Below, piece by piece: positions 47,974 to 51,426 of a stretch of DNA of 64,000 bases. This DNA is from Gloeobacter kilaueensis JS1 (GTDB lineage Bacteria; Cyanobacteriota; Cyanobacteriia; Gloeobacterales; Gloeobacteraceae). The stretch is taken from assembly GCF_000484535.1 (NCBI RefSeq), contig NC_022600.1, forward strand, positions 1,116,001 to 1,180,000. The letters are read 5' to 3'. The position numbers were made by a program, and so were the translations under genes. The notes below the pieces were generated by a model, which saw only the letters and a program-made list of their open reading frames with translations, was not told the DNA's origin and made no database searches. Each line of letters opens with the position of its first letter. The first letter of the stretch is position 1.

Positions 47974-48074
47974 ATGCGGGAAGCAGGAGCGGTCGCATGC
48001 TTAACAAACAGCTTTTTCCACGTTCTCTCAGTTAGGAGCCAACTTTTAGAACTCAAAAGCTGTGCTATTTATGT

Positions 48075-48560
48075 TCAATAAAAGTGAATGTGGTTGAAGT
48101 TAATTGCATCACATCCAACACTCGTTGAGTATTGAGATAGCTTGAAATCATCCGTGAGAATTAGGTATTTGTCGTGTCAAATATGGATTATCGAAGAATC
48201 AGTAAGGCCAAACCTTGGAAAGTCAGTCCTGATTGAAAGTTCATGGCTCGATATGTATTGTTCTTCTAGATTTATCAGCAGGGTGGAAAATCTTTGGAAG
48301 TAGCTCTGCATATTTTCTATTGGCAATTGATTGGATAAATTGCTTACTTCTGTGAGGACATTTGGAGTTGTAATCAGTTTACTGAAAAGCGCAACTATCT
48401 TTACTAAAACTTCAAAACTGTTTTGGTCGAAAGTCGATAACCTTTTGTATTTCGTTATCAGTCTTCTATCATATGATCCAACAAATAGTAATAGAAGAAT
48501 ATTTGAGTCAATGAATAATCCTCTGGTGCCATACTTTTGTATTAGCTCGTCAATCATCAA
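48075..48560 (-). pseudogene. PIN-domain toxin-like gene interrupted by in-frame TGA
   Basis: The intact upstream part (48177-48560, 127 codons) has LFIDSNILLLLFVG (first PIN Asp), TPNVLTEVSN (Glu) and FGLTDSSII (Asp). A TGA (48177-48179) ends it. Reading through in the same frame gives HDKYLILTDDFKLSQYST and CDAINFNHIHFY to a second stop at 48075, including the fourth acidic residue of PIN nucleases (LTDD). Thus the original protein was about 161 residues with a nonsense mutation at codon 128. The stop is followed by C, a context known to be leaky. The start overlaps the upstream antitoxin-like gene by 11 nt. Confidence 0.8.
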
Positions 48561-48876
48561 CCTTCCTGATTTTCATAGATTCAACCAGTCCCGTCTCTGC
48601 ATCTACCGCAAATAACTTATATTCCCTCTTGATTTGTTGTTTCAATGCCTCAAAGATCGCACTCGCAGAGGAAGTCATGCCCGACACGTCTGCCAACTTA
48701 CGAGTAAATCCGAGTGTGATTATCCATTTGGACATGTCTGGTGAAATTTCAACTTCCTCGACCAGAATGTCATAAATACGAATATCGCTGTACAACTCTT
48801 CTAAGCACTTGCGAGCTACTTGTACGGCCTCCTTAAGCGAAATTCTCTGGCCTTGATTTGCAATCTCCATGTCCAT
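48550..48876 (-). CDS. Antitoxin-like partner of the PIN gene
   Basis: The 108-residue acidic protein lies upstream of and overlaps the PIN gene (11 nt), as in toxin-antitoxin pairs. It has SLKEAVQVARKCLEELYSD and ITLGFTRKL, predicting an alpha-beta fold, with a KLFAVDAETGLVESMKI strand pair at the C-terminus. I do not recognise a DNA-binding motif, so the antitoxin role rests on arrangement only. The region is AT-rich, unlike the flanking GC-rich genes, which suggests recent acquisition. Confidence 0.6.
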   Translation of the reverse strand: MDMEIANQGQRISLKEAVQVARKCLEELYSDIRIYDILVEEVEISPDMSKWIITLGFTRKLADVSGMTSSASAIFEALKQQIKREYKLFAVDAETGLVESMKIRKVDD

Positions 48877-49197
48877 GTGCCCTTTATATTGTACTAATCA
48901 GTTTAGCTAAGCTGAATGACGGTTGCAGCCTTGCTGTAGCTTCTGCTTATAGGATGAGGTGCGCATCGACGAGCGCACCGGTAAAGTCTTCATCACCGGC
49001 TCTACTCGCCGCCTCGAATAGCAAGATTTCCTGCAGACAGCGATGTGCGAGCGGTGCTGGAGGAGGCACTGCGCCGCAAGCGGAGCCTGCAGTAACTTTT
49101 GGAAAGAAGCTGTAAACGATTCGTCGGCTTGAGTACCCGCAACGGCGGCGAGTAATATCGGGGGCAGCCCTCTTTCGAATAAAAAAGGGATCGAATC
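48877..49197. other. Gap with gene remnant and repeat copy
   Basis: No intact gene seen. From 48953 to 49018 the plus strand reads DEVRIDERTGKVFITGSTRR and continues to TAG; a shifted frame from 49015 reads ARFPADSDVRAVLEEALRRK to TAA at 49093-49095. The two pieces look like one decayed GC-rich gene end with a frameshift at about 49015. The family was not recognised. Copy 2 of the 53-bp repeat follows at 49123-49175. Confidence 0.4.
49123..49175 (+). repeat. 53-bp direct repeat, copy 2
   Basis: This segment repeats the last codons, stop and following ~20 nt of the TonB receptor (47582-47634) with four mismatches; it is not part of a gene here. The two copies flank the PepSY gene and the AT-rich PIN island, 1541 bp apart, start to start. 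Confidence 0.85.
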
Positions 49198-49773
49198 ATG
49201 GTCGGAGCAACGGACAGGCTATTGACCCTACAAGAATTTCTGGCCCTGCCGAAGAGTGATGCCCGCTGGGAGTACGTAGCAGGACGAGCAGTTGCGAAGA
49301 TGGCACCGAAATATCACTCCATCCGACTGCAGCGGGCACTAGAAGACTTGTTTGAGGCGTGGAGCATCGACCGGGGCCGGGCAGAGCGCGAATGGCTGAC
49401 CGCGCTCGTCCGCGCAGGTGAGAACTGGGCACCGCTACCGGACTTTAGTTTTGTTTCCTTCGAGCGCTTGCCCCGCGAGTGGAACGAGAATGCCGCCTGT
49501 CCGGCCATTCCGGAACTGGTGGTAGAGGTGGTTTCACCGGGCCAATCTTTTGGCGAGTTGGCGAAGAAGGCCGAGGATTATCTTGCTGCCGGGGTGGACC
49601 GGGTGTGGATCATCGATCCCGTGGAACGTACACTCACCGTGTTCTTTGGCGATCTTGCCCCGCGCACATTTGCCGATGAGCAGCCGATCATCGACTCGCT
49701 TTTTCCTGGTCTGGAGTTTTCGGTGGCAGCGCTTTTCGGACGGGCGGGCCTGCCGGGGGCACCGTCCAGTTGA
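49198..49773 (+). CDS. Uma2 family (DUF820) restriction-endonuclease-like protein
   Basis: The 191-residue protein has RLLTLQEFLALPKSD at the N-terminus and the PD-(D/E)xK pattern: APLPDFSFV (Asp), ELVVEVVSPGQ (Glu) and the following KKAEDYLAAGVDRVWIIDP. Uma2 proteins are abundant and mobile in cyanobacteria; their role is unknown. It stands between the 53-bp repeat and an IS110 element, supporting an accessory region. ATG 49198 is clear though a strong Shine-Dalgarno is absent. Confidence 0.88.
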   Translation: MVGATDRLLTLQEFLALPKSDARWEYVAGRAVAKMAPKYHSIRLQRALEDLFEAWSIDRGRAEREWLTALVRAGENWAPLPDFSFVSFERLPREWNENAACPAIPELVVEVVSPGQSFGELAKKAEDYLAAGVDRVWIIDPVERTLTVFFGDLAPRTFADEQPIIDSLFPGLEFSVAALFGRAGLPGAPSS

Positions 49774-49929
49774 AGGAGGATAGTTATCGTCTCTGTGAGC
49801 TGGCAAGATGCCTGTTCTATCCAGCAGTTCTCAGTAGACGAAGGTCATTAAACGTCAGCTCTAAGCAGCCCTACGTCCCTTGCAGCAGAAGAAAAATAAG
49901 ACGAGCCTGCAACTAACTTCACTTAGCCC

Positions 49930-50110
49930 CTCTGCAGCCCAGTTACAGTGAACCCCCCCTCGTATATTGCTATTGGTTCCAAGGTAGCGGTGAGGACTGT
50001 GCCCCCCCTTGCGGCTTTGACCGCGTGGAAGAGATTGTCCCCCGCTATCAAGGACCGGCAAAGCTGAACCGTATCGAGTGGCACTGACCACGTATCACGA
50101 GGCTAGACTT
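49930..50110 (+). ncRNA. Candidate IS110 bridge RNA region
   Basis: About 390 nt lie between the Uma2 stop and the transposase start without a gene. The segment can fold: CCTC (49958-49961) pairs with GAGG (49992-49995), enclosing a stem GCTA-TTGG-TT-CCAA-(GG)-TAGC at 49969-49988 with an internal loop between them. GCGG-CTTTGA-CCGC follows at 50011-50024. Two C7 tracts (49953-49959, 50002-50008) flank the first structure. IS110-group elements encode a bridge RNA with loops that pair donor and target DNA in this position, so this is a candidate; exact ends and loops are not resolved. Confidence 0.4.
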
Positions 50111-50164
50111 TTGCCGTCCTGCGGAACTTGCCTACCTCCTCTGAAGCTTCAACTGGAGACACTC

Positions 50165-51193
50165 ATGCAGCGAGACGGTTCACAAAACGACTATCAGCTA
50201 TTTGTCGGTATTGATGTGGCGGCACTCACTGTCACTGCCGCCTGGCTGCTCACCCACGCAAAGCCTACCGCTGCCATCACACTGCCCCAAACCCCCGAAG
50301 GACACTGCCAATTGGCCGAACGCTTACTCGCCGTCTGTCCCACCGCCGCTGAGGTGTTAGTGGTCATCGAAGCCACAGGCTCCTACTGGATGCGACTGGC
50401 CACATTTCTGGCGCTCAAAGGTTTTGCCGTCAGTGTGGTCAACCCCGCTCAGTCTCATTACTTTGCCAGGGCACTGCTCAAGCGTTCCAAAAGCGATGCG
50501 CTTGATGCCCAGACGCTTGCCCAACTCGCTGCCGCCCTGCAACCTGGTCTTTGGCAGCCGCCGCCTGAGATTTATTACCAACTCCAACAGCGCCTGCAGC
50601 ATCGCGATGCCTTGCTGCAGCAACGCCAACAACTGCACAACCAGTTGCACGCTCTGCGGCAATTTCCGTTGGTGGTGGCGGCGGTACAAGCGAGTCTGGA
50701 GCAGTTGAGCCACACCTTCGATGAGCAGATTGCGCAGATGGAAGCTCAGCTAGAAGCGCTGCTCGCCCAAGACTCGCTTTGGCATCAAGCTGCAACCAAG
50801 CTGCGCACTATCAAAGGCATTGGGTCTGTCACCGCTGGGTGGGTGTTGGTGAGTACCCTCAACTTCGGCTGCTGTGCAACGGTGGAAGCGGCGGTGGCCT
50901 ACGCGGGTCTCGCTCCCCGCTCCCACCGTAGCGGCACCAGCCTTCATAGACCAGAGCGCATCGGCCATGCAGGCAATGCCCGCTTACGCACGGCGCTGTA
51001 TATGGCGAGCTTGAGTGCGATCCGCTGCAATCAGCAGATTAAAAGCTTTTACCAGCGGCTACGAGCAGCCGGTAAACCGGCAAAGGTAGCGCTTTGCGCT
51101 GCGGCTCGCAAACTCTTACACATTGCCTGGGCGGTTGTGAAAACAGACACGCCTTTCGATGCAGAGCACGGCAGGTTGGTTTGCTTGCAGTAG
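50165..51193 (+). CDS. IS110 family DEDD transposase
   Basis: The 342-residue transposase has the RuvC-like tetrad Asp17 (VGIDVAAL), Glu69 (VVIEATGSYW), Asp111 and Asp114 (KSDALDAQTLAQL). A central coiled coil (about 135-205) follows, then the C-terminal domain with IKGIGSVTAGW and the presumed nucleophile Ser256 in PRSHRSGTS, then GHAGNARLRTALYMAS. All residues look intact, so it may be active. The start is ATG 50165. No flanking terminal inverted repeats were recognised, as expected for IS110. Confidence 0.9.
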   Translation: MQRDGSQNDYQLFVGIDVAALTVTAAWLLTHAKPTAAITLPQTPEGHCQLAERLLAVCPTAAEVLVVIEATGSYWMRLATFLALKGFAVSVVNPAQSHYFARALLKRSKSDALDAQTLAQLAAALQPGLWQPPPEIYYQLQQRLQHRDALLQQRQQLHNQLHALRQFPLVVAAVQASLEQLSHTFDEQIAQMEAQLEALLAQDSLWHQAATKLRTIKGIGSVTAGWVLVSTLNFGCCATVEAAVAYAGLAPRSHRSGTSLHRPERIGHAGNARLRTALYMASLSAIRCNQQIKSFYQRLRAAGKPAKVALCAAARKLLHIAWAVVKTDTPFDAEHGRLVCLQ

Positions 51194-51426
51194 GGCGGAG
51201 GAAGAGAAGAAAGGAGGAGGCTGCTTGACTCTCAATACCGTATCTCTTCTCCTCTGCCCGGCGGGGCAGCCCCCCATTCGGGGGGCAGGAGGAGGAGAGC
51301 GGGGGGCAGGGGGGGTGTGGAGGGGTGGGGACCGTTTTAGCAAGTACCCAAAAACAAAAGAACGCCCCCTCCAAAGAATCTACTTCCCCCACTCCAGCCC
51401 AAAACCTGCTGCCTATTTAGCTTCGT
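51194..51426. other. Purine/G-rich non-coding tract after the IS110 transposase
   Basis: No gene seen. It contains a hairpin GCCCCCC-ATTC-GGGGGGC (51269-51286), within a larger imperfect pairing of CTCTTCTCCTC and GAGGAGGAGAG, and a G-rich stretch at 51301-51330 (G6, G7, G4, G4 with short loops). It probably includes the right end of the insertion sequence, whose exact boundary is not visible. Confidence 0.5.

What the first reader, a model, noticed from the sequence alone, without database searches (positions are those of the whole stretch)
49800..50164. Structured non-coding leader of an intact IS110 element: candidate bridge RNA
The transposase keeps the DEDD tetrad and Ser256. Its upstream gap folds into a stem with internal loop and a second hairpin, as expected for bridge RNAs of the IS110 group, which direct recombination by pairing loops with target and donor DNA. 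Two C7 tracts at 49953 and 50002 may be loop or junction sequences. Target and donor guide segments were not assigned.
Basis: partly seen in the sequence, partly recalled or inferred. Interest (0 to 1): 0.6.

Follow-up and report, generated by a model that had tools for sequence, protein, structure and literature searches.

The report
Bridge RNA of a cyanobacterial IS110 element
The leader of this jumping gene is very probably a guide ("bridge") RNA: its four guide stretches match both the element's own ends and the one repeated hairpin into which all 17 copies in this genome have inserted, a clear new example of a kind of system first described in 2024.

Summary
At 49961-51245 lies a 1,285-bp IS110-group element with 17 full copies (16 identical, one with 1 SNP), all inserted at the same base of a dispersed palindromic repeat. 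Empty repeats fix the ends: the first ~160 bases of the finding (49800-49960) are target repeat, not IS. The remaining leader (LE, 204 nt) is very probably a bridge RNA. A covariance model built without this sequence finds it (E 2e-25); 12 of 22 consensus pairs show compensatory changes. They match the insertion site and the element's own ends (both pairs together: 0 of 20,000 shuffles). In Chloroflexota relatives most guides change together with their flanks. Of 51 repeat copies, the 17 occupied all match the guides; 17 empty copies match and 17 do not (Fisher p = 1.6e-4). Joining the ends creates a TTGACT-N17-TATATT promoter. The C7 tract at 49953 is the target; the one at 50002 is the guide. 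New member of a known kind; expression and activity untested.

The parts
49829..49960 (+). left part of the target repeat (host DNA, not IS); its last bases CCCCCC-CT are the left target and core
   Evidence: matches empty repeat copies elsewhere in the genome
49959..49960 (+). core CT at the left junction (CTC shared, so 1-bp ambiguity)
   Evidence: comparison of filled and empty sites
49961..51245 (+). IS110-group element, 1,285 bp, 17 copies in the genome
   Evidence: ends fixed by 17 filled and 34 empty repeats; 16 copies identical, one with 1 SNP
49961..50164 (+). left non-coding end (LE), 204 nt
   Evidence: between IS start and recombinase ATG
49963..49968 (+). -10-like box TATATT, completed only on the RE-LE circle junction
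   Evidence: TTGACT-N17-TATATT, 10/12; 9 of 5,000 shuffles reach it; relatives 12/12
49975..50125 (+). predicted bridge RNA (ends approximate)
   Evidence: covariance model built without it: 49961-50119, 92.8 bits, E 2.4e-25; fold
49983..50049 (+). target-binding stem-loop
   Evidence: fold and covariation
50002..50009 (+). left target guide CCCCCCCU
   Evidence: equals left target plus core CCCCCC-CT
50028..50033 (+). right target guide GAAGAG
   Evidence: complement of core plus right target CT-CTTC
50051..50120 (+). donor-binding stem-loop
   Evidence: fold; hairpin helix conserved with one covarying pair
50068..50075 (+). left donor guide ACCGUAUC
   Evidence: equals the right IS end ACCGTAT plus first core base; the second core base is not matched
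50097..50101 (+). right donor guide ACGAG
   Evidence: complement of CT-CGT at the left IS end
50165..51193 (+). IS110 recombinase, 342 aa, DEDD plus S256
   Evidence: PF01548, PF02371, NF033542; aligned to ISCro4 and IS621 structures
51194..51245 (+). right non-coding end (RE), 52 nt, with LD ACCGTAT and core CT at its end
51225..51230 (+). -35-like box TTGACT
51246..51355 (+). right part of the target repeat (host DNA); approximate outer end
   Evidence: matches empty repeat copies

Best explanation
The element is an IS110-group insertion sequence whose left end encodes a bridge RNA. Proposed cycle: (1) the element is excised as a circle; (2) joining RE to LE assembles a sigma-70-type promoter that transcribes the roughly 150-nt LE RNA; (3) the RNA binds the DEDD/Ser recombinase; (4) its target loop pairs LTG with the left target CCCCCC-CT and RTG with the right target CT-CTTC of a genomic hairpin repeat, while its donor loop pairs LDG and RDG with the element's own RE-LE junction ACCGTAT-CT-CGT; (5) the recombinase exchanges strands at the CT core, which inserts the circle. 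Shown by sequence: element ends, guides and their matches, conserved structure, site-specific distribution of copies. Inferred by analogy with IS621: transcription, RNA binding, circle formation and catalysis.
For: Intact IS110 recombinase with catalytic residues. Ends fixed by filled and empty sites. Held-out covariance model hit, E 2.4e-25; compensatory pairs. Four guides in the order LTG-RTG-LDG-RDG; 20,000 shuffles: target pair 3, donor pair 1, both 0; 0 of 3,545 pseudo-targets. Guides follow flanks in most relatives. 17/17 occupied repeats match the guides against 17/34 empty ones, p = 1.6e-4. Circle-junction promoter.
Against: No expression or activity data. Right guide does not match the right flank in both G586 copies and the left flank of L106 does not match its left guide. 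Folding energy alone is unremarkable (z -1.1 to -2.2). No 5' stem-loop like that of IS621 in the predicted fold. The second core base is unmatched in the left donor guide, and the core is unmatched in the left target guide of two relatives.
Confidence: 0.93

Rival explanations
1. The leader is only a structured 5' untranslated region that regulates transposase translation, and site choice is by protein-DNA recognition of the hairpin repeat.
For: The leader lies directly upstream of the gene and folds stably. A long hairpin is present at the target.
Against: Four separate segments match both target halves and both donor halves and most change with the flanks in relatives, including different targets for related recombinases. 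A 5' UTR role predicts no such matches.
Confidence: 0.03
2. The shared flanks come from duplication or gene conversion of IS-containing repeats, so site preference and guide match say little about targeting.
For: All copies sit in one repeat family and share about 28 bp of identical left flank.
Against: Flanks outside the repeat core differ between copies (mean ungapped identity about 0.27-0.35) while the IS copies are essentially identical; 34 empty copies exist; guide matches recur at unrelated sites in relatives.
Confidence: 0.03

Closest known systems
IS621 bridge RNA system (IS110 group; PMC11208160, PMC11208158)
   Same: DEDD/Ser recombinase, RNA in a long LE, order LTG-RTG-LDG-RDG, CT core, promoter formed on the RE-LE circle, ATA/TAT flanking the donor, insertion into a palindromic extragenic repeat
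   Different: Distant protein (phmmer E 5e-34); other guides and target; right target guide pairs over 6 bp where IS621 uses 4; no 5' stem-loop in the predicted fold; repeat is specific to this genome
ISCro4 (IS110 group, PDB 9t56)
   Same: Closest recombinase of solved structure (E 4e-38), same catalytic residues
   Different: RNA and target not compared here
IS110-like element of Herpetosiphon aurantiacus pHAU01 and relatives in Chloroflexota
   Same: About 48-57% identical recombinases, same RNA architecture, nearly the same donor (ACCGYAT-CT-YGTAT)
   Different: Other target guides and other targets; the Herpetosiphon target is not a multi-copy repeat
IS1111-group seekRNA elements (PMC11187229)
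   Same: Related DEDD recombinases, RNA-guided insertion into structured sites such as REP and attC
   Different: RNA lies downstream of the gene and long subterminal inverted repeats are present; neither is so here

Membership tests
IS110-group bridge RNA element | DEDD RuvC-like domain plus Tnp domain with conserved serine | tested here: met
   PF01548, PF02371, NF033542 above cut-off; D17, E69, D111, D114, S256
IS110-group bridge RNA element | Long non-coding LE with the RNA, short RE | tested here: met
   LE 204 nt, RE 52 nt; RNA model hit in LE
IS110-group bridge RNA element | Two stem-loops with internal loops, conserved by covariation | tested here: met
   12 of 22 pairs with both-side changes; covariation is mainly in the target-loop stem
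IS110-group bridge RNA element | Guides LTG, RTG, LDG, RDG matching own target and donor | tested here: met
IS110-group bridge RNA element | Short core shared by target and donor, precise insertion | tested here: met
   CT within a shared CTC
IS110-group bridge RNA element | Promoter formed on the RE-LE circle junction | tested here: met
   TTGACT-N17-TATATT as sequence only; transcription not tested
IS110-group bridge RNA element | 5' stem-loop before the two loops (IS621) | tested here: inconclusive
   absent from the predicted fold; IS110 RNAs are diverse in structure
IS110-group bridge RNA element | RNA is expressed, binds the recombinase and directs recombination | not testable with these tools
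   needs experiments
IS1111 group | RNA in a long RE; subterminal inverted repeats of 7-17 bp | tested here: not met
   RE is 52 nt; only short ATA/TAT flank the donor, by inspection of the ends
TIGR-Tas | Matches the Tas model above cut-off | tested here: not met
   NF052498 at 47.7 bits against a cut-off of 100
Any Rfam family | Match at the gathering score | tested here: not met

The most novel reading that the evidence does not exclude
Insertion depends on more than the guide match: all 17 occupied repeats carry CTCTTCTCC and none of the 7 guide-matched CTCTTCTTCC copies is occupied (Fisher p = 0.004), so the recombinase-RNA complex may also read the hairpin or bases beyond the known guides. 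Shared descent of repeat copies could also explain it.
Probability: 0.12. Interest if true: 0.5.

Novelty: new member of a known kind. Interest (0 to 1): 0.35.

Why it matters
Essentially identical copies at 17 of 51 copies of one repeat give a natural read-out of bridge-RNA target choice in a single genome. By its sequence identity the element spread very recently. It belongs to an early-branching cyanobacterium, has relatives in Chloroflexota, and has all four guides assigned, so it is a ready candidate for a programmable recombinase test.

Tried and rejected
Rfam: no match at the gathering score. Promoter and terminator scan of the linear locus: nothing useful. A first alignment with two loci in the wrong orientation (A2) was discarded. 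No relatives in phages; two weak relatives in viral contigs were not used. Whether the Herpetosiphon target is also a multi-copy repeat: only one exact copy in each of two genomes, so not supported. Distant elements (about 30-36% identity) were read by eye only: similar ends and guide-like matches, e.g. L089, but no statistics were made. IS1111 and TIGR-Tas membership rejected (see table).

Full report
Setting. The window lies in a 4,724,791-bp single-contig genome, the size published for Gloeobacter kilaueensis JS1 (PMC3806779). The recombinase ORF 50165-51193 (342 aa) carries PF01548 and PF02371 and matches NF033542, 'IS110 family RNA-guided transposase', above its cut-off. Against the IS621 and ISCro4 structures its residues D17, E69, D111, D114 and S256 fall on the catalytic DEDD and serine.

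Ends of the element. The genome holds 17 full copies, and all 17 recombinases are identical. Extracted copies are all 1,285 bp; 16 are identical and one has a single substitution, so the spread is very recent. Every copy lies in the same dispersed repeat. Empty copies read ...ACAGTGAACCCCCC-CTC-TTCTCC..., left junctions ...AACCCCCC-CTC-GTATATTG and right junctions ...CCGTAT-CTC-TTCTCC. With the CT core convention of IS621 the element is 49961-51245, with a 1-bp ambiguity because CTC is shared. Therefore 49800-49960 of the finding is target repeat.

Guides. In IS621 the left target guide equals the top strand of the left target and the right guide is the complement of the right target, both including the core, with the donor loop built alike (PMC11208160). 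Here the leader contains CCCCCCCT at 50002 (left target CCCCCC-CT), GAAGAG at 50028 (complement of CT-CTTC), ACCGTATC at 50068 (right end ACCGTAT-CT; the second core base is not matched) and ACGAG at 50097 (complement of CT-CGT, the left end). The pairs flank the hairpins GCGG...CCGC and GTGG...CCAC. Of 20,000 dinucleotide shuffles of the leader, 3 held the target pair, 1 the donor pair and none both; none of 3,545 CT positions elsewhere in the window is matched as well. The guides were first noticed by eye, so these numbers test how rare the pairs are, not a prediction made beforehand.

Structure. Seven leaders (this one and six from relatives found in a Chloroflexota search; two pairs are near-identical) give a consensus of 22 pairs, 12 with changes on both sides; 93.5% of cells are paired, and none of 500 shuffles reaches the covariation score. 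A model built without this sequence finds it at 92.8 bits, E 2.4e-25, and finds two leaders that were in neither model, L112 and L105. Folding energy alone is modest: z -1.1 for 49961-50150 and -2.2 for 49976-50124.

Covariation of guides with flanks. With guide windows taken from alignment columns, the left guide matches its own left target over 6 nt here, 9 in Herpetosiphon, 7 in L084, and 7 and 8 in the two G586 copies, against 0-5 nt for unrelated elements. The G377 copy has one mismatch (6 of 7) with its own target. The right guide matches its own target over 6 nt here, 6 in Herpetosiphon, 7 in L106 and 7 in G377. Exceptions are both G586 copies (3 and 2 nt on the right) and L106, whose left flank looks like another copy's right end. 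Donor guides covary too, as read from the sequences: ACCGCATC with ACCGCAT in Herpetosiphon, and ACAAG with CTTGT in G586.

Target use. The left half-motif of the repeat occurs 51 times at up to 2 mismatches, with none for the reversed control pattern. The 17 occupied copies all match the guides; 17 empty copies match and 17 do not (Fisher p = 1.6e-4; one empty copy, L033, was missed by the script's pattern and added). The 11-mer CCCCCCTCTTC occurs 19 times uninterrupted, 17 of them in the repeat. Repeat copies share descent, so these sites are not fully independent. No occupied copy has the TCTTCC variant (0 of 7), which the guides do not explain. The repeat folds into a long hairpin, about -66 kcal/mol for one empty copy, with the core in its left arm, and was not found in the five other genomes of the family that were searched.

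Expression. Joining RE to LE gives TTGACT-N17-TATATT, and TTGACA-N17-TATAAT in three relatives. In the integrated element the two boxes lie about 1.26 kb apart. The same arrangement is reported for IS621.

Verdict. It is a new member of a known kind. Searches of the held papers found no description of this element; ISfinder could not be consulted.

Noticed in passing
window 49829-49960 and 51246-51355; 51 places in the genome: A dispersed hairpin repeat, about 51 copies, was found only in this genome among six of its family. What spreads it is unknown.
   Followed up: partly
G000, empty repeats L029, L033, L034, L035, L039, L047, L058: Seven guide-matched repeats with CTCTTCTTCC are all empty, while all 17 occupied ones have CTCTTCTCC; the guides do not explain it.
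   Followed up: partly
L106 around 1250-1270: The left flank (ACACCGTATCT) resembles the right end of the element itself, as if left by a tandem copy or by donor-donor recombination.
   Followed up: no
L111 and L114: Two near-identical copies in one genome differ in the right target guide, and neither guide matches its right flank well.
   Followed up: no
L107 around 2640-2800: A second partial C-terminal recombinase copy seems to follow the first directly.
   Followed up: no
window 48177-48876, minus strand: Two small ORFs without a Pfam match in a stretch of low GC (48% in 48001-50000 against about 62% around), possibly acquired DNA next to the Uma2-family gene at 49198-49773.
   Followed up: no
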